NCBI GenBank assembly: GCA_011171075.1
Contig: DUFD01000044.1
Coordinates: 1 to 64,000, forward strand
Length of the DNA: 64,000 bases
Origin: Dehalococcoidia bacterium
GTDB lineage: Bacteria; Chloroflexota; Dehalococcoidia; Dehalococcoidales; Fen-1064
Reading direction: 5' to 3'
Shown in pieces: positions 25,915-39,755 of the stretch (its first letter is position 1; each line of letters opens with the position of its first letter). A model generated the notes under the pieces. That model made no database searches. It was not told the DNA's origin and saw only the letters and a list, made by a program, of their open reading frames with translations. A program made the translations under genes and the position numbers.

Positions 25915-26331
25915 CTATTCTTTTTTGGCGACTTCACTTTCGATTATCTCGTTCTGCATCTCTGCCAGGTATCTGTTGACCTCGGCAATGAAAGTCTGGA
26001 CATCAATTGGCTTGGTCAGGTAGCTGTTGCAGCCGGCGGCTATAGCCAGTTCTTTATCCACAGGCATGGCAAAGGACGTCAGGGCGATAATGGGGAGGTC
26101 CTCCTCGCTTTCTTGGCCACGAATCCTGCGGGTTGCCTCATGTCCGTCGATACCCGGTAGCTGGATATCCATAATAACGAGGTCTGGCTTTTCGTCGAGT
26201 GCCAACTTCACACCTTCAAGGCCGTCCCTGGCCTCGATTACCTCGTGTCCGCCTTTTTGCAGGATGAAACGGATTAAATACAGATTGGTATCGTTGTCAT
26301 CCACTACCAGTATTTTCTTCATTGTTCTCAT
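25915..26331 (-). CDS. Response regulator receiver protein (DivK-like)
   Basis: MKKILVVDDNDTNLYLIRFILQKGGHEVIEARDGLEG...DLVIMDIQLPGIDGHEATRRIR. Confidence 0.88.
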   Translation of the reverse strand: MRTMKKILVVDDNDTNLYLIRFILQKGGHEVIEARDGLEGVKLALDEKPDLVIMDIQLPGIDGHEATRRIRGQESEEDLPIIALTSFAMPVDKELAIAAGCNSYLTKPIDVQTFIAEVNRYLAEMQNEIIESEVAKKE

Positions 26332-29300
26332 CTCCTCTGTATTCCAGTGGTAGAGTTAAACCAAAATCACTGCCTTTGCCGTACTCACTCTTTATCCAGA
26401 TGTCACCCCCCAGCATTTGTAAGATTTTCCTGCTGTGGTGCAGTCCGAGACCGGTGCCTTCAAATCTGCGGGTAAGGCTTCCGTCGACCTGCTGGAAGGG
26501 CGCAAAGAGCTTGTCGATGTCCTCATTTTCAATCCCGATGCCGGTATCGATAACATGGACTTCTAGGGTGTCATCGTGTGTGTGACCGTTTTCCTCGTGC
26601 AAAGCAGCGATAATTCTGACGCTCCCTTGCTCGGTAAATTTGACAGCATTACCTCCCAGGTTTATCAGGACCTGTTTGAAGCGACGTCGGTCGGTGTAGA
26701 GCTGGATTTCCCCATCGGTTTCTGCTGTAAGTTCAATGCCTTTCGTTTGCGCGGCCGGGGTCAGTATATCCACCACTTCAGATATGAGTTCATTAAGGGG
26801 GAATTCCTCCAGTGAAAGCTCGACCTTTCCGGCTTCAATCTTTGAGATGTCTAAAACATCGTTAATAAGGCTCAGTAGGTGGTTACTGCTGCTCTTTACC
26901 AGGCTGAGTTGCTCTCTCTGCTCTTCGTTGATGTCTCCCGTCATGCCATCCAGAATCAGGCTGGTGAACCCGATGATTGAGTTCAGCGGCGTCCTGAGCT
27001 CATGGCTCATGCTTGACAGGAAGATGGACTTAAGGCGGTCTACTTCCTGGAGCCGGGCGTTGGCCTCTTCGAGTTCGCGGTTTTTCTCGGCAATCTCCCG
27101 CTCCGCTTCTTTTTGCTCGGTGACGTCAATAGTCACGGTTCGCAGTCCGACTGCCTTGCCGTCTTGAAGGATTGGCGCAGAATATGTGACAACCGGGTAA
27201 GTGCTGCCGTCCCTCCTCGTCTGGGTATATTCAACACGACCAAGGGTCTCTCCATTTAATATCCTCTGGATATTTTCCTTGACCCTTTCACGGTCCTCGA
27301 GGATGAAGACATCAAGCGGATTGAGGGGGGCAGCATTAACTTCACTCTCGTTATAGCCTGAATCTTCGATGGCTTTCTTGTTGGCGAAGGTGATGTTAAG
27401 CTTGTCGTCCATCTCGGTGACACTCAGTGGCAGGAGATTGACCAGGTCACGGAAGCGTCGGCGGGTATCCCGTAGTCTCTCCTCATTTTTCTTGCGTTCG
27501 GTAATGTCGAGGACGCTTCCCAGGACAGCCCGTTTCCCCTGGTACTGGATGGGCGCTACCGTTTCCATGAACCACCTGCTCTCACCGTCTCTGCTGGTGA
27601 CCGCGTACTCATAAGGCGTGGTACGTTCTCCTTTCAGCATGGCTCTCGCGTTTTTCCTTACCGTTTCCCTGTCTTCGCGACGTACTCTGGCCAGGGATCT
27701 CCTGCCAAGCACCCTGTCCTCAGTCATGCCTAAATCACTGATAAACTGTGGATTGGCAAAGACAAATTTTCCGTCCTGAACTATGTACATGCCGACCGGT
27801 GAGCTTAGTGACAGGGTCTGGAAGATTTCCTCCGCCTGCTTACGCTCGGTATTGTTGAGGGCACTCCCCAGGATAGCTCGTTTTCCCTGATACTGTATGG
27901 AGGCAATCGTTTCGGTAACCCACATAGTGTCGCCGTTTTTATTGAGGGCCCGGTACTCATAAGGTGTAGTACGTTCTCCCTTCAGCATGGCTATCGCGTT
28001 CTGCCTCACCATTTCCCTGTCTTCTGGATGAATTATGTCTTGAGGGTCAGTGTTGAGTATCTCATCTTTGCTGTAGCCGGCGTTTTTGAGGAATTCGTCA
28101 TTGTTGAAGACATACTTCCCGTCCTGCAGTATGTATATACTTGCCGGCGAGCTTAGCACTATAGTCTGGAAGATTTCCTCTGCCTGCTTACGCTCGGTGA
28201 TATCCATAGAGGCGATGAGCACGTTGGTTACCTTGCCCTGTGAATCAGATATCGGAGACAGATTGGCGAGGATGTTGATATAGGAGCCGTTTTTACGCAT
28301 AGTGCGGCACTCGATGTTTGCCACGCTTTGTCCTCTCATCACGCGGGCGAACGCAGCTTTCACAGCACGCGTGTCATCGGGGTGTAGCATTGAGAGAATG
28401 CTAATTCGTTTGATTTCCCTATCTGAATATCCGTGGTGCTTTTTCCATTCCTTGTTGGCAAAGAGGAGGTTAGCTTTCAGGTCTGTAGTGGCTATCATGT
28501 CCGGAGAGGTTTCTACCAGCTGTCGGTACCTCAGCTCGCTCTCCCGCAACCTCTCTTCAGCCTGTTTTTGCACGGTGATATCACGACTGATATAAGTAAA
28601 GAACGTTTCTTTCCCTGCTTGCCACTTGGCTAGGGTCATGCCTACCGGGATTTCAGTCCCGTCTTTTCTCAGCCTGACTGTCTCCGTCATGCCGCTTGGA
28701 GGGCTTGAGTTCTGAGATGAAAGCATGGCTTCGATCTCATCCTGGAAGGCCTGATGTAAACGCTCTGGCATTATCAGGGTTAATGGCTGACCGACAGCTT
28801 CGTCGGCAGAGTAGCCGTAAATTTTCTCAGCTGCCTTATTCCAGAGGACGATACGTGTCTGGGCATCAATTGTAATGATTGCCTGGTGGGCCGATTCTGT
28901 AACTGCACGGAAGCTCTCTTCGCTGTGACGCAGTGCCTCCTCCATCCGCCTGCGTTCAGTAATGTTGAAAGGAGTTGCCAGCACGGCTGGTCTACCCCGG
29001 TACTCGATGGGCGCGACAGACGTGATAATCCACTGGACACTACCGTCTTTATTAATACCCCTGAACTCGAAAGGTCTGGTCAGCTTTCCTTTAAGCATCT
29101 CAGCCATTTTCTCCGTGACCATTTCCACGTCGTCGGGGTGGATAAGCTTGCTCGGGTCCATGGCAAGAAGTTCAGCCTCGGTGTAGCCGGTGTTCCGACT
29201 GAAAGCTGGATTTACTAACTGAAATCTGTCGTCCTGGAGGATATAGACGCTGACAGGCGAGTTTTTCAATATGTCACTGAGTAGATTTTCGGCCTGTTTG

Positions 29301-32293
29301 CGTTCGGTGATATCCAGGATGCTGCCGAGGACAGCCCGCCTCCCCTGATACTCGATTGGGGCAACGGTCTCGGCGACCCATAGCATTTCACCGGTATTTG
29401 TAAAGGAGCGGTACTCATACGGTGTGGTACGTTCTCCTTTCAGCATGGCTATTGCGTTCTGCCTCACCATTTCCCTGTCATCCCGGTGGATGAGGTCTTG
29501 GGGTTCAATATTAGAAAGCCCTTCTTCGGTATAACTGATACGGTTGCGGAGCCGAGGATTGGTAAAAACGAACTTACCGTCCTGTGCTATATAGATACTC
29601 GCCGGCGAATTGAGCGCTATAGTCTGGAAAATTTCCTCTGCCTGCTTCTGCTCGGTGATATCCACAACGTTTCCCAGAACAGCTCGTTTCCCATGGTACT
29701 GGATTGATACCACCGTCTCTGAGAGCCATGCCTCAACCTCACCGTTCTCGTTGACAATCCGGTACTCATAAGGTGTGGTACGTTCTCCTTTCAGCATGGC
29801 TATCGCGTTCTGCCTCACCATTTCCCTGTCATCCGGGTGAACCCGGTCTAAAGAATGGGTACCGAGTAATTCGTCTTCGGTGGTGCCCCCGTTCATGAAA
29901 AACCGGGGATTGGCGAAGACAAACTCTCCGTCCTGGACAACATACATGCCGGCCGGCGACCTGAGTGATACCGTACGGAAAATCTCCTCTGTCTGCTTGC
30001 GCTCGGTGATATCTTCAAATACCGCTGTGAAATAACCTTTCTCAGGGCTGTATATTGAGCTTGCAACCCATTTCCCCAGCGGCTCGAAGTAATCTTCATA
30101 TCTGGCGCTTTCGCCGGTTGCGGCAACTTCTCCGAGGACATCGAACAGGTCGGCATTTGATACTGTTAAAGCGGGCATTATTTCGCTAAATCGTCTACCG
30201 ATTAATTGCTCCTTCTTAATTCCGACCAGCCCTTCAATACTGTCATTTGCCTCAAGGCATAACGCATCTACTGGTTTATCATTTTCATCCGTGATTATCT
30301 TTCCGTAAACAAAGCCCCCAGGCATATTTTCAAAGAGGGAGCGGTATCTCTGGGCACTTTGTGCTATCGCCTCTGCCATTCGCTTACGGTCTGTGATATC
30401 TCTGGTAGAGATAATGCCGATTGGTTTGCCGTTATATTCGGTCCGTACCCCGGTTACACTTACCCATATCTCGTCACCATTCTTTTTCATGCACCGGATT
30501 TCGTATAAACCCCGCCGGTCTTCCTTGAACAACCCCACAGTGATATGCTCAATTGCCCAGTCCTGGAACTCTGGCATAACGTAGTCGAGCAGATTGGCTT
30601 CGTATAGCTCGCCGATAGAGTCGAAGCCGAACATATCTGCGACAGCTTGATTGGCGAGTACAATTTTCATTGTTTCATCAATGACGAAAGTGCCCTCGAG
30701 CTTGGTCTCGAACAGGGCCCGGTACCTCGCTTCCGACTCGGATAATTTCTCTTCTGCCTGCTTCTGTGCGGTGACGTCTCTTATAACAGAAATAAAGCCG
30801 GTAGGCCTGCCGGTGGCATCTTTCAGTACGCTGGTGCTGGTTTCCGAGGGGAATCTGGAGCCGTCTTTTCTAGTGACGCCGTATTCGATACCTCTATCTG
30901 CCCCTGTTTCCAGTACGGAGTTCATGTCTGCCATTACTTTCGGGAGGTCCGTAGGGTCTACCAGTTTAAGGGAATTAGCCCCGATTAGCTCTCTGGGGGT
31001 CTTACAACCGTACATCTGTACTGCTTTTTCATTAGCATCGGTGATGATACCGTCGAGGTTGGTGACCACTATCCCGTCGGTCACCGATGAAAACATACGG
31101 CGTAGTTCTTCCTCACTCTCTCTTAAGGCTTCCTCTGCCCGTTGACGCTCGGTGATATCCTCCCCGGAACTGAGGTGACCAACGATAGTTCCGTCTTCAT
31201 CCCTAAGCAGGACATTATGCCAGGCGATAGTCCTCTCCTTACCACTCTTGGTCAAGACAGGATTTTCATAATACTCGGTTGCCTCTACTTCTCCGCTCAG
31301 AAGTTTCCGGGCAACTGACTTAACCTCTTCTCTTAATCTCGGTGGCAGGAAGTTATCAAACCAGTCCTTGCCTACGATTTTTTCCTCTGGATACCCAAGA
31401 ATCTCACAGCCCTTTCGATTTATCAGGGTGACCTTACCGCTGGTATCTATTGCCACAAAAACAACTCCGGCAACATCGAGATATTTCTGGGCAGTATCTC
31501 TTTCATGCCGCAATGCTTCCCTGCTCTGGCTTAAGTCTCTGAGGATAAGCTGATAGGGACGGGTGAGCCCGGCATCAACAACGGCTTGGAATATACAGCC
31601 GAGTGATACCAGTTGGGCCAGATGGGCTACCATATTGATTAACTCGTCATTGGTCTTAATAAAAGCGTAAACAATGCCAGCACCGGCGGTTATGGTCATG
31701 GCTGCAATTAGAAGTCTCAGGACACTGGAATTAAAGGAGCGGCGCTTCTGGAGTAGTAAAAGTATGGCACTGGCGTAGATGAGGGCAATAAGGTACTGGC
31801 TGGTATCTGTAAACAGGGCTTGACCCCCACCTCTGGTATTGGCTGCTGGTGACAAATTCCACAATATGACGGTTATTAGTAAGACCGGAGCAATGATGGC
31901 GTAAGCAAGGAAGACAGAGCGCGGTCTTAGCTTGTGGCCGATAAACAGGGGGGCAGCCAGGAAGGTGAGGCTCTCCATGTAACGGGTGGCTACCCAGAGA
32001 TGTTCCGCAGTGCTGTCACCGTATCCATAAATAGCTTCTAGGGAAAGTGTATGTGCCATCTGCAGACCACCGATGAACAGGTAGGCAATACCAATGAATA
32101 GAAGATAGTTATTACCTAGGTAGTTACGCGAGGTCCAGACGAGGATGAAAATCCCTAGGGCAATCGCTATACTGAACAAGCTGGCCAGACTGAGAAAAAG
32201 GTCATAGTTGTAGACGCTGGCTGCATAGAGCCCGCCCAGAGCGAGTGCCATCAAGAAAAAGGGTAAGTAGGTTCTGCGGTAGGGTATTCTCAT
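26297..32293 (-). CDS. MASE3-like membrane sensor histidine kinase with about 12 PAS domains
   Basis: N-terminal multi-TM block after MRIPYRRTYLPFF; serial PAS units each ending D(I/V)TERKQAEE; HisKA FLSSMSHELRTPLNSIIGFTSLI; HATPase FEGTGLGLHHSRKIL. The track ORF extends to 32422 but the N-terminal TM domain starts at 32293. Confidence 0.92.
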   Translation of the reverse strand: MRIPYRRTYLPFFLMALALGGLYAASVYNYDLFLSLASLFSIAIALGIFILVWTSRNYLGNNYLLFIGIAYLFIGGLQMAHTLSLEAIYGYGDSTAEHLWVATRYMESLTFLAAPLFIGHKLRPRSVFLAYAIIAPVLLITVILWNLSPAANTRGGGQALFTDTSQYLIALIYASAILLLLQKRRSFNSSVLRLLIAAMTITAGAGIVYAFIKTNDELINMVAHLAQLVSLGCIFQAVVDAGLTRPYQLILRDLSQSREALRHERDTAQKYLDVAGVVFVAIDTSGKVTLINRKGCEILGYPEEKIVGKDWFDNFLPPRLREEVKSVARKLLSGEVEATEYYENPVLTKSGKERTIAWHNVLLRDEDGTIVGHLSSGEDITERQRAEEALRESEEELRRMFSSVTDGIVVTNLDGIITDANEKAVQMYGCKTPRELIGANSLKLVDPTDLPKVMADMNSVLETGADRGIEYGVTRKDGSRFPSETSTSVLKDATGRPTGFISVIRDVTAQKQAEEKLSESEARYRALFETKLEGTFVIDETMKIVLANQAVADMFGFDSIGELYEANLLDYVMPEFQDWAIEHITVGLFKEDRRGLYEIRCMKKNGDEIWVSVTGVRTEYNGKPIGIISTRDITDRKRMAEAIAQSAQRYRSLFENMPGGFVYGKIITDENDKPVDALCLEANDSIEGLVGIKKEQLIGRRFSEIMPALTVSNADLFDVLGEVAATGESARYEDYFEPLGKWVASSIYSPEKGYFTAVFEDITERKQTEEIFRTVSLRSPAGMYVVQDGEFVFANPRFFMNGGTTEDELLGTHSLDRVHPDDREMVRQNAIAMLKGERTTPYEYRIVNENGEVEAWLSETVVSIQYHGKRAVLGNVVDITEQKQAEEIFQTIALNSPASIYIAQDGKFVFTNPRLRNRISYTEEGLSNIEPQDLIHRDDREMVRQNAIAMLKGERTTPYEYRSFTNTGEMLWVAETVAPIEYQGRRAVLGSILDITERKQAENLLSDILKNSPVSVYILQDDRFQLVNPAFSRNTGYTEAELLAMDPSKLIHPDDVEMVTEKMAEMLKGKLTRPFEFRGINKDGSVQWIITSVAPIEYRGRPAVLATPFNITERRRMEEALRHSEESFRAVTESAHQAIITIDAQTRIVLWNKAAEKIYGYSADEAVGQPLTLIMPERLHQAFQDEIEAMLSSQNSSPPSGMTETVRLRKDGTEIPVGMTLAKWQAGKETFFTYISRDITVQKQAEERLRESELRYRQLVETSPDMIATTDLKANLLFANKEWKKHHGYSDREIKRISILSMLHPDDTRAVKAAFARVMRGQSVANIECRTMRKNGSYINILANLSPISDSQGKVTNVLIASMDITERKQAEEIFQTIVLSSPASIYILQDGKYVFNNDEFLKNAGYSKDEILNTDPQDIIHPEDREMVRQNAIAMLKGERTTPYEYRALNKNGDTMWVTETIASIQYQGKRAILGSALNNTERKQAEEIFQTLSLSSPVGMYIVQDGKFVFANPQFISDLGMTEDRVLGRRSLARVRREDRETVRKNARAMLKGERTTPYEYAVTSRDGESRWFMETVAPIQYQGKRAVLGSVLDITERKKNEERLRDTRRRFRDLVNLLPLSVTEMDDKLNITFANKKAIEDSGYNESEVNAAPLNPLDVFILEDRERVKENIQRILNGETLGRVEYTQTRRDGSTYPVVTYSAPILQDGKAVGLRTVTIDVTEQKEAEREIAEKNRELEEANARLQEVDRLKSIFLSSMSHELRTPLNSIIGFTSLILDGMTGDINEEQREQLSLVKSSSNHLLSLINDVLDISKIEAGKVELSLEEFPLNELISEVVDILTPAAQTKGIELTAETDGEIQLYTDRRRFKQVLINLGGNAVKFTEQGSVRIIAALHEENGHTHDDTLEVHVIDTGIGIENEDIDKLFAPFQQVDGSLTRRFEGTGLGLHHSRKILQMLGGDIWIKSEYGKGSDFGLTLPLEYRGDENNEENTGSG
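27600..29831 (-). repeat. Dispersed intragenic ~70-bp DNA repeats encoding MVRQNAIAMLKGERTTPYEYR
   Basis: Near-identical blocks at 27951-28021, 29409-29480, 29760-29830 and a diverged copy at ~27604-27675. Confidence 0.85.
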
Positions 32294-32859
32294 AGGACTA
32301 CCAGTCTCCTCTGGTAGAAAGTGAGGCAGGCATGTGTCGGTCGTAGCTGTCAACTGCGTATAGTGGGCATCGACCGATGAGGTTACCGTTGGGCCGGTTT
32401 GTGGATAGTGGCGGAACAACAAGGAACCTGTAACTCATCACCTACCTCCCATGCCACCTTACAGGTTTCCGCTATTATAGCTTTCTTTGTTTGTTTTCCT
32501 TTGAAATCACTGACCGTGTATAGATGTCAGGATATCGCGAATCACTAGTGCCTACATGACTATCGTAGGATACGGTACTACCTGTTTACAATACGTTGAC
32601 GCCCCTATTCGGCCATTGCGCTTTACGTACTTTAAGGCTAGCTATGAGGGCAAAAGAGCACTGTTAGGACCTTATAAAGGTGTGCCTGTCATTGTTTTTG
32701 GCCGCTTTAACCCCCGGTACTACGTACGTTTGCAGAAGGCCAATTCCCATTGTGATACTTTATCGTGGGCAGCGTATAAACCTGTAAATCGGGAAGATGA
32801 TTCCTGTCTATTCTATTGTTAAAGTGGATAAGGCATCCCTAGTTTCCAAGGAGGAAATC

Positions 32860-35800
32860 ATGAAAACGCACTGGTTTAAACTGACAGTCATTATACTGGC
32901 GCTGGTAGTAGTCGGTTCGGTTCTGCCGGCCTGTCAGCCACTGGAGGCTGCCGAAAGCTACCTGGCAGTGATACCGCGAGTGCTATTGAGTGGTAGTACG
33001 GAGTCCATTTCCATAGCACTGTTTAAGGGTGACAATCTGATTAGAAGTAAGGTCGAGGTTACCCTGCTGAAGGATGGCGAGGAGATAGCGCGGAGCAACC
33101 AGACAGTAAATGGCAAAGGCACTATCGAGCTGGACATCCCTAGTGATATCGACGAGGGCGAGTATCAGGTCAGGGTATCGGGTGTCGGTTTTGAAGATGA
33201 GGCATCGGTACTGGTTGACGCCAGCTTCGTAGTCTTCCTCGAGACGGATAAACCCATCTATAAACCGGGTCAGACCATTCACATCAGGACGATTACCCTG
33301 ACTCCCGAGCTCAAGCCGGTAGAAGGTCTGGTCACAGTGGAAGTCCTAGATGCCAAGGGCATCAAGATATTCCGCAAAGATGTGCAGACAGACGAGTTCG
33401 GTATGACCAGTGTCGACCTGCCAATATCTAGTGAGCCAAACGAAGGTGCCTGGAAGATAACGGCCATCACGGAAGAGGGGAGGACGCAGCTCGATGTCAG
33501 GGTCGAGAAGTATGTGCTTCCTAAGTACGAGGTCAAGGTAGAATTACCCAAGGAGTGGTTCCTGGTGGACGAGCCAATCACCGGCACTGTTCTGTCGGAG
33601 TACAGCTTTGGAAAGCCGGTTACAGGCGAGCTGGAAATCAGGGCGTCCCACTACATCGGCGAGTGGCGTGAATACGCCATCTTCACCAAGCCGATTGACG
33701 GCGAGACCGACTTTCAAATCCCTGCCGTTGGCTATGTTGCCGGGGTACCGGGTGCAGGCGGGCAGGGCAATGTAATACTGGACATAACTGTTAGAGAGAC
33801 GGCTACCGGATACGAAGGAACCACCAGCCGACTGCTGACAGTTTCGCAGTCGCCCCTTAACCTCCAGTTGATTCCAGAGAGTATGGTCTTTAAGCCGGGT
33901 CTACCGTTTGGCATGCTGATAGTGACGGAGACCCCCGATAATCAACCTCTAAATGCCGAGGTAGCACTGGAACTGACCTATCTTGATAGTGAGTATAACG
34001 AGATAGAGAAAGAGGAGCAACTGATAAATACCAGCAATGGCAAGGCACTGTACAGCACCAATCCTCCGGCGGAGGCAGTTGCCCTGCTGATAGAGGCTTA
34101 TACCGAAGGGGAATGGGAAAGCCTGACGTTACTGGCTTCCTACTCACCGTCCGGGAACTTCATACACGTGGAGCAGGTGAGTGAAGGTATTCCGGCGGTG
34201 GGCGAGATAATCCAGTTCAAGGTGAACTCAACCAGGCGGGCATCCAACTTTTATTACGAGGTTGTGTCCCGTGATAAAGTGGTCTTTTCCGATTATACCA
34301 GGAGCAGCACTATTTCCTTCCGCACCACCCCGATGATGGCGTCGTCTGCCAGGCTGCTTGTTTATCAGATACTGCCTAACAGTGAGGTCGCTGCAGACTA
34401 CATTCCGTTTGAAGTAAGCCCGGTATACCCTCACTACGTGACCGCCGAGTTCAGTCAGGATGAAGCCGAACCCGGTGACGACATTCAGATTGATATCAGG
34501 GCAGAAGGTCAGGCAAGAGTGGGTATTGCCGCCGTGGACAGGTCTGTCTATATCCTTGCCGAGAACCGTCTCAACCTGCAGCAGGTCTTTGACAAGCTGG
34601 AGGAACTCTACATGCAACCTCAGGTTGAGCTGCACGAGGTCTCAATCTATCCCAGGATAACCACCAGGGGAGCGATGGACGTCTTCGAGGATGCCGGGGT
34701 AGTGGTGCTGAGCAACAACGACATTCCAGAAGGCAAGGAGTATGAGGCCGGTGATAAGGGTGGTTTCTGGGGTGGTTTTTGGAGAGGAATAGGAGTGATG
34801 GAGGCTGCCGGAGAGCAGGAGGAGGAAGATTTTTCCGCTCCGCAGGCGACCAATGGTGATGACGGTGGTGCCGGACTTGCCGAGGTTGAGAGGGTAAGGC
34901 AGTTCTTCCCCGAGACCTGGCTCTGGATAGAAGACACCACCGGGACTAACGGTCGGTTGTTACTTGATGTGACGGTACCGGATACTATCACCACCTGGAT
35001 GCTGCGGGCGGTGGCCATATCAAAGGAGCAGGGTCTCGGCATTGCCGAGGACGAGCTGGTGGCGTTCCAGCCATTTTTCCTGACGATTGACCTGCCGTAC
35101 TCGGCGATAAGGGGCGAGGAATTCCCCGTTCAGGTAGCTATTTACAACTACCTCGATGAGCCTCAGGAAGTTTTAGTGGAGATTGAAGACGCCGGCTGGT
35201 TCGACCTGCTGGATAACGCAAGTCAGACGGTGGAGATTGATGCCAACGATATCGGCAGTGCCTCGTTCATGATGAGGCCGACAGAACTGGGCATCAGTTC
35301 GGTACAGATAACAGCCAGGAGCACCGAGGCAGCGGATGCCGTAATCAAGACTTTGATAATAGAACCTGAGGGTGTTGCCCGCGAGGTGGTGAGTAACCTC
35401 AATATCTCTGCGGGAGACCCGGAGACGGTCACCACCGATATACCCTTCGATGCGGTTGATGGTTCTGGCAGGGCCTATCTAACGGTCACCTCCAGCTATC
35501 TTACCCAGACGCTTGAGGGGTTGGAGGAGCTTATCCAGATGCCCTTCGGCTGCGGTGAGCAGAACATGCTACTGCTGGCCCCGGATATCTACATAACCAA
35601 GTACCTCCAGGAGAGCGGACAAGTTAAGCCGGAGATAATGGCAAAGGCGGAGCTGCTAATGATTACCGGCTACCAGAGGGAGCTGACCTACCGCCGCAGC
35701 GATGGCAGTTTCTCTGCCTTCGGTGAGAGCGACGATATAGGCAGCCTCTGGCTGACCGCCTTCGTCCTCAAGTCGTTTGCCGAGGCGAGGGACCTTATCT

Positions 35801-36990
35801 ATATTGATGAAAACGTTCTCAGTGAGGCAAAGGCGTGGATTACGGCACACCAGAACGCCGACGGCTCCTTCGACCAGGTCGGTTTTGTACATCATCAGGA
35901 ACTGATAGGTGGCGTCAATGGTAAAGATGCCCTCACTGCCTACGTGGCGATTGCCCTGATGGAGGCCGGAGATAACATTGGTGGAGCGAAGGCTGTAGCC
36001 TACCTTGAGAATCAACTCAGTGGCATGGACGATGACTATACCCTGGCACTCACTGCTTATGCCCTCGAACTGGCCGGCAGCGCCAGGGCCGACGAAGCGT
36101 ACCAGATGCTGATGGCTATTGCTCAGGAGGACGAGGACGGACTGCACTGGGGTACCGGTGGGGATATCCTGCCGGAGCAGACCAGGGGCTTTGCTCCCGG
36201 TATCGGCCGGAGCGCCGACGTCGAGATTACCGCTTACGCCACGCTGGCTCTAATCAAGCACGGCGATAGTTACAACGCTTCGCGCGCTGCCAAGTGGCTG
36301 TCGTCACGGAGAAACGCCTACGGTGGCTACGGTTCAACACAGGATACGGTGGTTGCCCTGCAGGCCCTTACCGAATACTCCACGGGCACCAGGGCCGATG
36401 TTGACCTGACGATAAACATTACCGGTGACGGTATTAACGAACAGGTGCGGCTGACTGCGGACAACTTCGATGTACTCCAGGTGATTGAAATTCCGGTGAA
36501 CACAGAAATCGAGATTACGGCTACCGGACAGGGCGAAGCGGTTGCCCAGGTAGTGCGGAGGTTTAACCTGCCACAGGCCGAGACCGCAGAAAGCATACTG
36601 AATATCGAAGTCGACTATGACGTCACCGAGGTCGCCGTGAACGACCTGGTAACGGTGTCGGTGGAGCTGAGCTTTAACCCGCTTGAGCCGATGGAAGCCG
36701 GCATGATAGTAGCCGACATCTCCGTGCCGACCGGTTTCACGGCGGTTACCGACACCATTGCGGCGGCCCTTGCGCAGGAGGCCAAGATAAAGCGTTACGA
36801 GATTGCCGGACGAAAGGTCATATTCTATATCGAGAACATGCTTCCCGGCGAGAGTCTGTCCTGGAGCTTCCAGGTGAAGGCGGCTTACCCGGTGAGGGCT
36901 AAGGGAGTCTCCTCTCAGGTGTATTCCTACTACAAACCGGATATCAGGGGAGAGACGCTCGGGGAAAACGTTACTGTCTCGGGAGATTAG
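32860..36990 (+). CDS. Lipoprotein alpha-2-macroglobulin / thioester-containing protein
   Basis: RBS aaggagg before ATG 32860; lipobox VLPAC; DKPIYKPGQTIHIR; FFPETWLW; VPDTITTWMLRAVAIS; thioester MPFGCGEQNM (GCGEQ at 35548-35562); C-terminal receptor-binding-like domain. Confidence 0.92.
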   Translation: MKTHWFKLTVIILALVVVGSVLPACQPLEAAESYLAVIPRVLLSGSTESISIALFKGDNLIRSKVEVTLLKDGEEIARSNQTVNGKGTIELDIPSDIDEGEYQVRVSGVGFEDEASVLVDASFVVFLETDKPIYKPGQTIHIRTITLTPELKPVEGLVTVEVLDAKGIKIFRKDVQTDEFGMTSVDLPISSEPNEGAWKITAITEEGRTQLDVRVEKYVLPKYEVKVELPKEWFLVDEPITGTVLSEYSFGKPVTGELEIRASHYIGEWREYAIFTKPIDGETDFQIPAVGYVAGVPGAGGQGNVILDITVRETATGYEGTTSRLLTVSQSPLNLQLIPESMVFKPGLPFGMLIVTETPDNQPLNAEVALELTYLDSEYNEIEKEEQLINTSNGKALYSTNPPAEAVALLIEAYTEGEWESLTLLASYSPSGNFIHVEQVSEGIPAVGEIIQFKVNSTRRASNFYYEVVSRDKVVFSDYTRSSTISFRTTPMMASSARLLVYQILPNSEVAADYIPFEVSPVYPHYVTAEFSQDEAEPGDDIQIDIRAEGQARVGIAAVDRSVYILAENRLNLQQVFDKLEELYMQPQVELHEVSIYPRITTRGAMDVFEDAGVVVLSNNDIPEGKEYEAGDKGGFWGGFWRGIGVMEAAGEQEEEDFSAPQATNGDDGGAGLAEVERVRQFFPETWLWIEDTTGTNGRLLLDVTVPDTITTWMLRAVAISKEQGLGIAEDELVAFQPFFLTIDLPYSAIRGEEFPVQVAIYNYLDEPQEVLVEIEDAGWFDLLDNASQTVEIDANDIGSASFMMRPTELGISSVQITARSTEAADAVIKTLIIEPEGVAREVVSNLNISAGDPETVTTDIPFDAVDGSGRAYLTVTSSYLTQTLEGLEELIQMPFGCGEQNMLLLAPDIYITKYLQESGQVKPEIMAKAELLMITGYQRELTYRRSDGSFSAFGESDDIGSLWLTAFVLKSFAEARDLIYIDENVLSEAKAWITAHQNADGSFDQVGFVHHQELIGGVNGKDALTAYVAIALMEAGDNIGGAKAVAYLENQLSGMDDDYTLALTAYALELAGSARADEAYQMLMAIAQEDEDGLHWGTGGDILPEQTRGFAPGIGRSADVEITAYATLALIKHGDSYNASRAAKWLSSRRNAYGGYGSTQDTVVALQALTEYSTGTRADVDLTINITGDGINEQVRLTADNFDVLQVIEIPVNTEIEITATGQGEAVAQVVRRFNLPQAETAESILNIEVDYDVTEVAVNDLVTVSVELSFNPLEPMEAGMIVADISVPTGFTAVTDTIAAALAQEAKIKRYEIAGRKVIFYIENMLPGESLSWSFQVKAAYPVRAKGVSSQVYSYYKPDIRGETLGENVTVSGD

Positions 36991-38509: not shown

Positions 38510-38600
38510 TTGTCATATGCTCTCGCCCTCCCGAAAAGCGGGAGGGCGGTGGCTCCTCATACTGTTCATGGTAATATCCCTTCGAGTGGAGAGTGAAATA

Positions 38601-39755
38601 ATGTCAAAGAAAATTGTTATAGCGACGATGGTAGTTCTGTCGTTGGCCGTGAGTCTGCTTATTCTTCCCGGAACTGGCTGTGAACTTATCGCCGACCAGA
38701 CAGCGTCCAAGACTGAGCTGGACGTGACTCTCCTTGAGGAGATATGGGAGATTCTACAGGAGAAGTATGTCGAGCCTGATGAGCTTGATGTCGAAGCCCT
38801 GATTCAGGGAGCGGCCAGAGGGATGGTCAATGCCCTGGGCGACCCGTACAGTGCCTACCTGGACCCCGATGACTTTGAGATATTTGGCACCGGACTTGAA
38901 GGTGAGTTCGAGGGGATAGGTGCCTATGTGGGGGAACGTAACGGCCAGATTACGATTATTGCTCCCATTCCAGGTACCCCTGCCGACGAGGCCGGCATAA
39001 GGCCGGGAGACGTTATCATGGGCGTTAATGGCGAGTCCACCGCAGGGTGGAGCGTGCAGGATGCGGTCATTGTTATTCGCGGTCCCAGCGGTACTTCGGT
39101 AAAGCTCCTTATTCTCCATGAAGGGGATACCGAGCCGGTAGAAATTGAGATAATCAGAGCATCGATTGAGGTACCCAGCGTGTACTTCGAGATGCTGGGT
39201 GAGATTGCCCATGTCACCATTGCCGAATTCACCGACCGCACCGATGACGAACTGGCAACAGTCCTTGACGAGGTCATCGAGCAGGAAGCTACAGGTATAA
39301 TCATCGACCTGCGTAACAATCCTGGTGGCTTAGTGTCGGCTGTGGTCGATGTTACCAGTCGTTTCCTGACTGATGGTATAGTCCTCTCTATAATAAATAA
39401 TGAAGGTAAAAAGACTGATTATCCGGTAGAATCTACCGGTGGTGATATTAAACTACCCATAGTAGTGCTGGTAAACCAGTACAGCGCCAGTAGCAGTGAG
39501 GCAATGGCTGGTGCTTTGCAGGACCATGGCGTGGCGGTTATTGCCGGTACTACTACTTATGGCAAGGGCAGTGCCAATAACCTTTACCGACTCTCCGGGG
39601 GCTCCGGACTGTATCTCACCACTGGTCGCTGGTACACGCCGGAAGGACGTCTCATTGAAGGCGAAGGGATTGAGCCGGACTTTCCACTTGACCTTGAGGA
39701 AGTCGACCCCGTGGAGTGGGCTGTTGATTATCTGGAGAATATCACGCAATCATAG
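38601..39755 (+). CDS. S41 family C-terminal processing peptidase (lipoprotein)
   Basis: MSKKIVIATMVVLSLAVSLLILPGTGC; PDZ (GIRPGDVIMGVNGEST); catalytic NQYSASSSEAMAGALQDHG...TYGKGS. Confidence 0.93.
   Translation: MSKKIVIATMVVLSLAVSLLILPGTGCELIADQTASKTELDVTLLEEIWEILQEKYVEPDELDVEALIQGAARGMVNALGDPYSAYLDPDDFEIFGTGLEGEFEGIGAYVGERNGQITIIAPIPGTPADEAGIRPGDVIMGVNGESTAGWSVQDAVIVIRGPSGTSVKLLILHEGDTEPVEIEIIRASIEVPSVYFEMLGEIAHVTIAEFTDRTDDELATVLDEVIEQEATGIIIDLRNNPGGLVSAVVDVTSRFLTDGIVLSIINNEGKKTDYPVESTGGDIKLPIVVLVNQYSASSSEAMAGALQDHGVAVIAGTTTYGKGSANNLYRLSGGSGLYLTTGRWYTPEGRLIEGEGIEPDFPLDLEEVDPVEWAVDYLENITQS

What the first reader, a model, noticed from the sequence alone, without database searches (positions are those of the whole stretch)
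32860..36990. Metazoan-like alpha-2-macroglobulin/thioester protein anchored as a lipoprotein
Seen: lipobox VLPAC, DKPIYKPGQT, FFPETWLW, VPDTITTWMLRAVAIS, FQPFF...PYSAIRGEEFPVQV, the thioester MPFGCGEQNMLLLAPDIY, GYQRELTYRRSDGSFSAFGE, STQDTVVALQAL and a C-terminal domain like the A2M receptor-binding domain. These match animal A2M/C3-type blocks more closely than the YfhM-type bacterial A2M as I know it. A1397-class length and the RBD-like end also resemble animal A2M. Bacterial A2Ms are known, but this eukaryote-like subtype in a probably wall-less lineage is worth study as a protease trap or surface adhesin. No pbpC neighbour is present, unlike many enterobacterial A2M loci.
Basis: partly seen in the sequence, partly recalled or inferred. 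Interest (0 to 1): 0.7.

Follow-up and report, generated by a model that had tools for sequence, protein, structure and literature searches.

The report
Animal-type thioester protease trap in bacteria
This bacterial gene encodes a membrane-tethered protein built like the animal CD109/alpha-2-macroglobulin/complement proteins, not like the known E. coli-type version; close relatives occur across Chloroflexota and in methane-producing archaea, which makes the textbook idea that these immune proteins arose in animals directly testable.

Summary
Window 32860-36990 (+) encodes a 1376-aa lipoprotein with the complete animal A2M/TEP architecture: MG2-MG3-MG4, bait-region domain, A2M, TED and A2M receptor-binding domain. 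It has none of the E. coli YfhM-type bMG domains. Its best structural relatives, by sequence and by predicted fold, are human CD109, A2ML1 and A2M.

It belongs to an apparently undescribed prokaryotic family: patchy in Chloroflexota, in cultured Methanosarcinales archaea, rare in Actinomycetota MAGs. Across 78 members the thioester Cys and Gln are invariant, the C3-type catalytic His is present in 75, a Cys aligns with the lipobox in 70, and both halves of the animal "plug-in-channel" trigger are essentially invariant. One hypervariable, low-confidence segment sits where the bait region belongs.

Best explanation: a cell-surface-anchored, monomeric, covalent snap-trap protease inhibitor working like A2ML1/CD109. 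This is inferred; no function was tested.

Phylogeny: animal TEPs form one clade. An animal-to-prokaryote origin of this family is rejected by AU tests. Most likelihood analyses place animals beside the bacterial members, excluding archaea, but raw site patterns lean the other way, so the root is unsettled.

The parts
32850..32854 (+). GGAGG ribosome-binding site upstream of ATG 32860
   Evidence: sequence
32860..36990 (+). animal-type A2M/TEP lipoprotein gene, 1376 aa plus stop
32860..32934 (+). signal peptide and lipobox VLPAC; Cys25 is the predicted lipid-anchored residue, and 70 of 78 family members have an aligned Cys
   Evidence: lipoprotein enzymes Lgt and LspA present in the genome
33232..33486 (+). 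MG2 domain (residues 125-209)
   Evidence: PF01835
33511..33522 (+). MG2-MG3 linker YVLP (residues 218-221), equivalent of A2ML1 Tyr214-Pro217 that lines the bait channel; Tyr and Pro 78/78, Leu 77/78, Val 72/78
   Evidence: PMC9156758
33508..33672 (+). MG3 domain
   Evidence: PF17791
33886..34107 (+). MG4 domain
   Evidence: PF17789, (25.1 bits, just over the cut-off of 24.7)
34177..34557 (+). bait region domain A2M_BRD
   Evidence: PF07703
34720..34863 (+). predicted bait region (about residues 621-668): the least conserved stretch of the protein, A/G/P/E-rich, mostly pLDDT below 50
34897..34911 (+). RQFFP 'plug' (residues 680-684), equivalent of A2ML1 Arg730-Pro734; R, Q, F683 and P identical in 78/78
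   Evidence: PMC9156758
34915..35181 (+). A2M domain PF00207 (residues 686-774)
35494..36378 (+). thioester domain (TED_complement)
   Evidence: PF07678 E 2e-86
35548..35565 (+). thioester motif GCGEQN (Cys898-Gln901; Cys and Gln 78/78); Cys898 is the only Cys apart from Cys25
35893..35895 (+). His1012, position of the C3/C4B/A2ML1 catalytic histidine (75/78)
36694..36951 (+). A2M receptor-binding domain (MG8-like), with YxYYxP aromatic motif
   Evidence: PF07677 E 1.4e-14

Best explanation
It is a cell-surface lipoprotein of the animal-type A2M/thioester-protein superfamily that most likely works as a monomeric, covalent protease trap in the manner of human A2ML1 and CD109. Proposed steps: (1) Lgt/LspA process the lipobox and tether the mature N-terminus to the outer face of the membrane of a cell without a penicillin-binding wall. 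(2) An attacking extracellular endopeptidase cuts the exposed, disordered bait region (about residues 621-668). (3) The conserved RQFFP plug retracts from the channel made by MG2, MG3 and the YVLP linker, releasing the CUB-TED-MG8 block. (4) The Cys898-Gln901 thioester is exposed, and His1012 converts it to an acyl-imidazole that bonds to Lys/Ser/Thr groups of the protease. (5) The protease stays covalently held and sterically shielded at the cell surface. Shown here: gene, domains, invariant thioester/plug/linker residues, hypervariable bait segment, lipobox, predicted fold. Inferred: export, thioester formation, and every mechanical step from 2 on.
For: Complete animal-type domain order and no bMG domains, with E. 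coli YfhM as a positive control for the bMG models. Best PDB matches CD109, A2M and A2ML1. Predicted structures (mean pLDDT 76.9 and 80.0) match native CD109 first (E 2.5e-72) and CD109 first for the N-half (1.3e-37); no bacterial A2M is in the top 50 of either search. Thioester Cys and Gln 78/78, His 75/78. Plug R-Q-x-F-P 78/78, linker Tyr and Pro 78/78 and Leu 77/78; these are the residues proposed to trigger the animal conformational change (PMC9156758), and they are not found in YfhM. The bait segment is the least conserved 40-residue stretch (top-residue frequency 0.26 against a median of 0.64; mean pairwise identity 22% against 52%) and is mostly predicted disordered. Lipobox or lipid Cys in most bacterial and archaeal members, some with Tat-type signals. 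Lgt and LspA present. Monomeric A2ML1 needs thioester conjugation to inhibit (PMC9156758), so a Cys-poor monomer with an invariant thioester fits.
Against: No experiment shows thioester formation, export, bait cleavage or inhibition. The family could instead deposit itself on surfaces like complement C3 or insect TEP1, for which protease inhibition has not been shown (PMC9156758). No conserved neighbour gene supports any function. Sister genomes often lack the gene, so it is dispensable. The natural target protease is unknown. That the protein is a monomer is assumed from its lack of spare Cys, not shown. No library of predicted cellular structures was available.
Confidence: 0.72

Rival explanations
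1. A C3/TEP1-like surface tag or adhesin: after proteolytic activation the thioester esterifies hydroxyl groups on neighbouring cells, phages or extracellular polymers, giving attachment or opsonin-like marking rather than protease capture.
For: His1012 predicts ester formation with hydroxyl groups, as in C3 and C4B (PMC9156758). Surface lipoprotein. Many hosts are sediment, groundwater or anaerobic-habitat microbes (record titles).
Against: No anaphylatoxin or C345C domain. A bait-like hypervariable segment rather than a fixed convertase site. No partner protease or factor-B-like gene conserved nearby. A2ML1, a true protease inhibitor, also has the His and reacts with hydroxyls (PMC9156758).
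Confidence: 0.2
2. Ordinary bacterial (YfhM/ECAM-type) A2M that merely looks animal-like.
For: Shares the superfamily fold, lipobox and thioester logic with YfhM; many bacterial A2Ms exist.
Against: YfhM shows 22% identity over 261 aa against 35% over 680 for CD109. No bMG1, bMG2, bMG3, bMG5, bMG6 or bMG10 domain. The plug and linker motifs are not found in YfhM. A branch with 100/100 support separates YfhM and the long Chloroflexota A2Ms from this family plus animals. PF07677 rings in 0 of 14 control genomes although PF00207 rings in 4.
Confidence: 0.03
3. Recent transfer of an animal CD109-like gene into prokaryotes (the Budd-type scenario).
For: The closest solved homologue is CD109; the distribution in prokaryotes is patchy; animal-to-bacteria transfer is the standing hypothesis for other bacterial A2Ms (PMC13069473).
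Against: Animal sequences form one clade (100/100 in most trees, 98/99 in one). Trees with the family nested beside CD109 are rejected (p-AU 0.00035 C-half, 3e-8 full length). Diversity within the prokaryotic family is large (archaea 42-45% to the window) and includes cultured archaea and single-contig genomes.
Confidence: 0.05

Closest known systems
Human CD109 (GPI-anchored TEP)
   Same: Domain order, near full-length sequence match (503 bits), predicted fold, membrane tether, bait-like region, thioester and His (GPI anchor per PMC7960916)
   Different: N-terminal bacterial lipid anchor instead of C-terminal GPI; only 2 Cys in all; not inside the CD109 branch
Human A2ML1 (monomeric protease inhibitor) and A2M
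   Same: Plug R-Q-x-F-P (R-K-Y-F-P in A2M), linker Y-V-L-P, thioester, receptor-binding domain with YxYY; about 32-33% identity in the C-half
   Different: Soluble in animals; human A2M is a tetramer and has Asn in place of the catalytic His
Complement C3/C4 and insect TEP1
   Same: TED, catalytic His (C3), MG8 aromatic motif in C3, 29-31% identity for C3 and TEP1
   Different: No ANA or C345C domain; bait-like segment instead of a convertase site
E. coli YfhM (ECAM) and Salmonella A2M (type I bacterial A2M)
   Same: Lipoprotein, bait domain, CxEQ thioester
   Different: 1653 aa with bMG domains and a pbpC neighbour; 22-26 bits against the window C-half
Type B prokaryotic A2Ms (L128, L129, L153) found here
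   Same: TED_complement and A2M_recep in the two full-length ones, R-Q-x-F-P-E-T plug
   Different: 27-33% identity, 1494-1659 aa; used as outgroup

Membership tests
Animal-type A2M/TEP superfamily (A2MF) | MG domains, bait domain, A2M, TED and A2M_recep in animal order | tested here: met
   All over Pfam cut-offs, MG4 only just
Animal-type A2M/TEP superfamily (A2MF) | Internal thioester motif GCGEQ with invariant Cys and Gln | tested here: met
   78/78; the bond itself not testable here
Animal-type A2M/TEP superfamily (A2MF) | Plug-in-channel residues (Y-x-L-P linker, R-x-x-F-P plug) | tested here: met
   Plug R, Q, F, P 78/78; linker Y, P 78/78 and L 77/78; definition from PMC9156758
Animal-type A2M/TEP superfamily (A2MF) | Groups with animal TEPs to the exclusion of YfhM-type proteins | tested here: met
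   100/100
Animal-type A2M/TEP superfamily (A2MF) | Bait cleavage leads to conformational change and covalent capture | not testable with these tools
   needs biochemistry
CD109 branch of animal TEPs | Clade with CD109 inside animals | tested here: not met
   Rejected, p-AU 0.00035 and 3e-8
CD109 branch of animal TEPs | Cell-surface tether | tested here: met
   Lipobox/lipid Cys in most members; chemistry differs from GPI and the tether itself is predicted
Complement C3/C4/C5 | ANA and C345C domains | tested here: not met
   No such Pfam match
Type I bacterial A2M (YfhM/ECAM) | bMG1/bMG2/bMG3/bMG5/bMG6/bMG10 domains | tested here: not met
   Absent in window, present in YfhM
Type I bacterial A2M (YfhM/ECAM) | pbpC genetic linkage | tested here: not met
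   Neighbours; no PF00905 in genome; E. coli control
Type II bacterial A2M (YfaS-type) | often lacks the CxEQ thioester; encoded with four lipoprotein genes | tested here: not met
   Thioester motif present, no such operon; definition from PMC3328433

The most novel reading that the evidence does not exclude
The whole animal thioester-protein superfamily (CD109, A2M, complement C3-C5, insect TEPs) descends from a bacterial surface lipoprotein of this family, acquired by an early animal or its ancestor from a Chloroflexota/Actinomycetota-like donor.
Probability: 0.42. Interest if true: 0.92.

Novelty: new variant of a known kind. Interest (0 to 1): 0.7.

Why it matters
Reviews up to April 2026 still offer animal-to-bacteria transfer as the (non-definitive) origin of bacterial A2Ms (PMC13069473). 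[quoted passage not shown] A prokaryotic family with CD109-like architecture, thioester and plug-in-channel residues, present in cultured archaea and complete bacterial chromosomes, conflicts with that picture. It offers an outgroup for rooting the origin of complement and A2M, and simple, Cys-poor proteins for studying the mechanism.

Tried and rejected
(1) Eukaryotic contamination: rejected. There is a ribosome-binding site, a lipobox and no interruption of the frame, and relatives lie in single-contig genomes and named isolates. (2) Conserved operon partner: none; shared flanking genes are limited to the same genus or to the Methanosarcinales, apart from scattered ABC-transporter genes. (3) Shared indels to root the tree: none found. 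(4) Raw quartet site patterns favoured all prokaryotic members together with animals beside the outgroup (met+B wins 2296 of 3000). Simulations gave an equal split under the bacteria+animal tree and a stronger met+B excess under the rival, with the observed ratio between the two; likelihood differences matched the bacteria+animal simulations only. The root is therefore reported as unsettled. (5) The AU test with the very long YfhM, type C, C3 and TEP1 branches included did not reject prokaryotic monophyly (p 0.116). (6) L094 (Deltaproteobacteria) and L095 (Methanosarcinales, 53%) look like misbinned Chloroflexota contigs and are not counted as evidence for those groups. (7) Budd et al. 2004 is not held in the library.
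Full report
OBSERVATION. The frame is open from 32797 to 36990 on the + strand. The start at 32860 is preferred because GGAGG lies 5 bases before it and it opens directly into a signal peptide ending in VLPAC|Q. The mature protein has one Cys (898) besides the lipid Cys25. Pfam finds MG2, MG3, MG4, A2M_BRD, A2M, TED_complement and A2M_recep, all over their cut-offs, although MG4 only barely (25.1 bits against 24.7).

WHAT IT RESEMBLES. Against the PDB the best match is human CD109 over residues 96-1327 (503 bits), then A2M, A2ML1 and TEP1, with complement lower. With the C-half alone the known bacterial A2Ms reach 22-26 bits against 392 for CD109. In that half the window protein is as close to CD109 (35%) as CD109 is to human A2M (35%), and closer to C3 (29%) than CD109 or A2M is (27%, 26%). 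Scanning E. coli YfhM with the same library returns bMG1, A2M_bMG2, bMG3, bMG5, bMG6 and bMG10, none of which is found in the window protein.

DISTRIBUTION. The gene is single-copy in its genome. In 399 Chloroflexota genomes 33 match at E<=1e-20; about 19 of these are this family (50-63% over the aligned part, besides the window itself), including single-contig genomes G039 and G186. Others are a distant 'type B' (about 33%) or the long bacterial type (24-29%). A scan of GTDB genomes gave 198 relatives, of which 80 were kept: many Chloroflexota, a few Actinomycetota MAGs, and Methanosarcinales archaea at 42-45%, among them cultured Methanolobus profundi, M. vulcani and M. bombayensis, and Methanococcoides alaskense and M. 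seepicolus. The RBD family PF07677 rings in 16 of 61 relatives, 20 of 249 genomes of the archaeal phylum, 2 of 298 of the actinobacterial phylum (both already known from the scan), 2 of 247 of the L094 phylum, and 0 of 14 controls.

ANATOMY ACROSS THE FAMILY. In 78 members Cys898 and Gln901 are invariant. His1012, aligned with the C3 catalytic His, is present in 75. An automated rule found a lipobox after a hydrophobic stretch in 64 of 78, and a Cys aligns with Cys25 in 70; this includes archaea with the SGC lipobox and some bacteria with Tat-type RR signals. The least conserved 40-residue stretch of the protein falls within 628-672 (top-residue frequency 0.26, median 0.64; pairwise identity 22% against 52%); the segment is rich in A, G, P and E and mostly has pLDDT below 50 in the model. 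It lies between the bait-region domain and the RQFFP motif. The A2ML1 cryo-EM study proposed that residues Arg730-Pro734 plug a channel lined by the MG2-MG3 linker Tyr214-Pro217 and that loss of this plug triggers the animal conformational change (PMC9156758). The equivalents here, R-Q-[F/Y]-F-P and Y-V-L-P, are invariant or nearly so in all 78 and were not found in YfhM.

STRUCTURE. AlphaFold models of residues 440-1376 (mean pLDDT 76.9, pTM 0.62) and 26-680 (80.0, 0.65) have the expected MG, CUB-TED and MG8 elements. Foldseek ranks native human CD109 first for the former (E 2.5e-72) and CD109 first for the latter (E 1.3e-37). The first 50 hits of both searches are animal A2M/TEP/complement structures. 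The moderate pTM means domain arrangement is less certain than the domains themselves.

SURROUNDINGS. Upstream and divergent is a MASE3/multi-PAS histidine kinase. Downstream on the same strand are an alpha/beta hydrolase, an S41 C-terminal-processing protease with its own lipobox, and a GNAT enzyme; then deformylase and PriA on the other strand. Only same-genus genomes share this order. The genome encodes Lgt and LspA and no PF00905 transpeptidase was found.

PHYLOGENY. Metazoan rows (CD109, A2M, A2ML1, C3, TEP1; read from PDB alignments, C3 recalled and confirmed against PDB) form one clade. Rooted with the long bacterial A2Ms and/or type B, the order is archaea first, then Actinomycetota, then Chloroflexota and animals. 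The branch holding bacteria plus animals without archaea has 100/100 in the large C-half tree, the reduced C-half tree and the full-length tree, and 89/93 in the C-half tree with five animals. Placement within the bacterial part is unstable. Forcing all prokaryotic members together gives p-AU 0.116 (long outgroups), 0.039 (type B outgroup) and 0.0016 (full length). Without PMSF, LG+F+R5 gives 0.0037 and LG+C20 a log-likelihood gap of 31. Forcing the prokaryotes beside CD109 inside animals gives p 0.00035 and 3e-8. Simulations under the two main trees show that the observed likelihood gap (29) is typical of the bacteria+animal tree (18 to 48) and not of the rival (-9 to 0). Raw site patterns, however, show more animal/outgroup sharing than that model predicts. 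I conclude that animal-to-prokaryote transfer is disfavoured and that this family is the closest prokaryotic relative of animal TEPs among those compared. Animals descending from the bacterial side is favoured but not proven: animal sampling is five proteins, no non-bilaterian or non-animal eukaryote was available, and the outgroup is only three type B proteins.

FUNCTION. Monomeric A2ML1 inhibits proteases only through thioester conjugation (PMC9156758). A tethered monomer with invariant thioester, His and plug and a variable bait fits that mechanism best. Complement-like deposition is the main rival. Nothing functional was tested.

KNOWN OR NEW. Ten literature searches were allowed and nine were run; none returned a description of this family. 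The 2026 reviews read here describe bacterial A2Ms as having extra N-terminal domains or as acquired from animals, and do not mention archaea. Public automatic annotations may already call members 'alpha-2-macroglobulin family protein'. The library is open-access only, and absence from it is not proof of novelty.

Noticed in passing
window 26297-32356 (-): 2019-aa sensor histidine kinase with a MASE3 membrane domain and about ten PAS domains in tandem.
   Followed up: no
window 38529-39755 (+): S41 C-terminal-processing protease with its own lipobox (PGTGC), on the same strand two genes after the A2M gene; order conserved only in the genus.
   Followed up: partly
L128:2621-7597, L129:2610-7091, L153: A second, rarer prokaryotic group with TED_complement (L128, L129), A2M_recep and the RQ[Y/F]FPET plug, 27-33% identical to the window protein: possible deeper branch of animal-type A2Ms.
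   Followed up: partly
L013, L015, L083 and other Chloroflexota loci: Several family members have a Tat-type RR signal before the lipobox, suggesting export of the pre-folded protein.
   Followed up: no
L093, L094, L101: The three members lacking the catalytic His carry Asn or Asp at that position, as human A2M carries Asn.
   Followed up: no
L094, L095: Contigs filed as Deltaproteobacteria and Methanosarcinales carry Chloroflexota-like copies; probable misbinning.
   Followed up: partly
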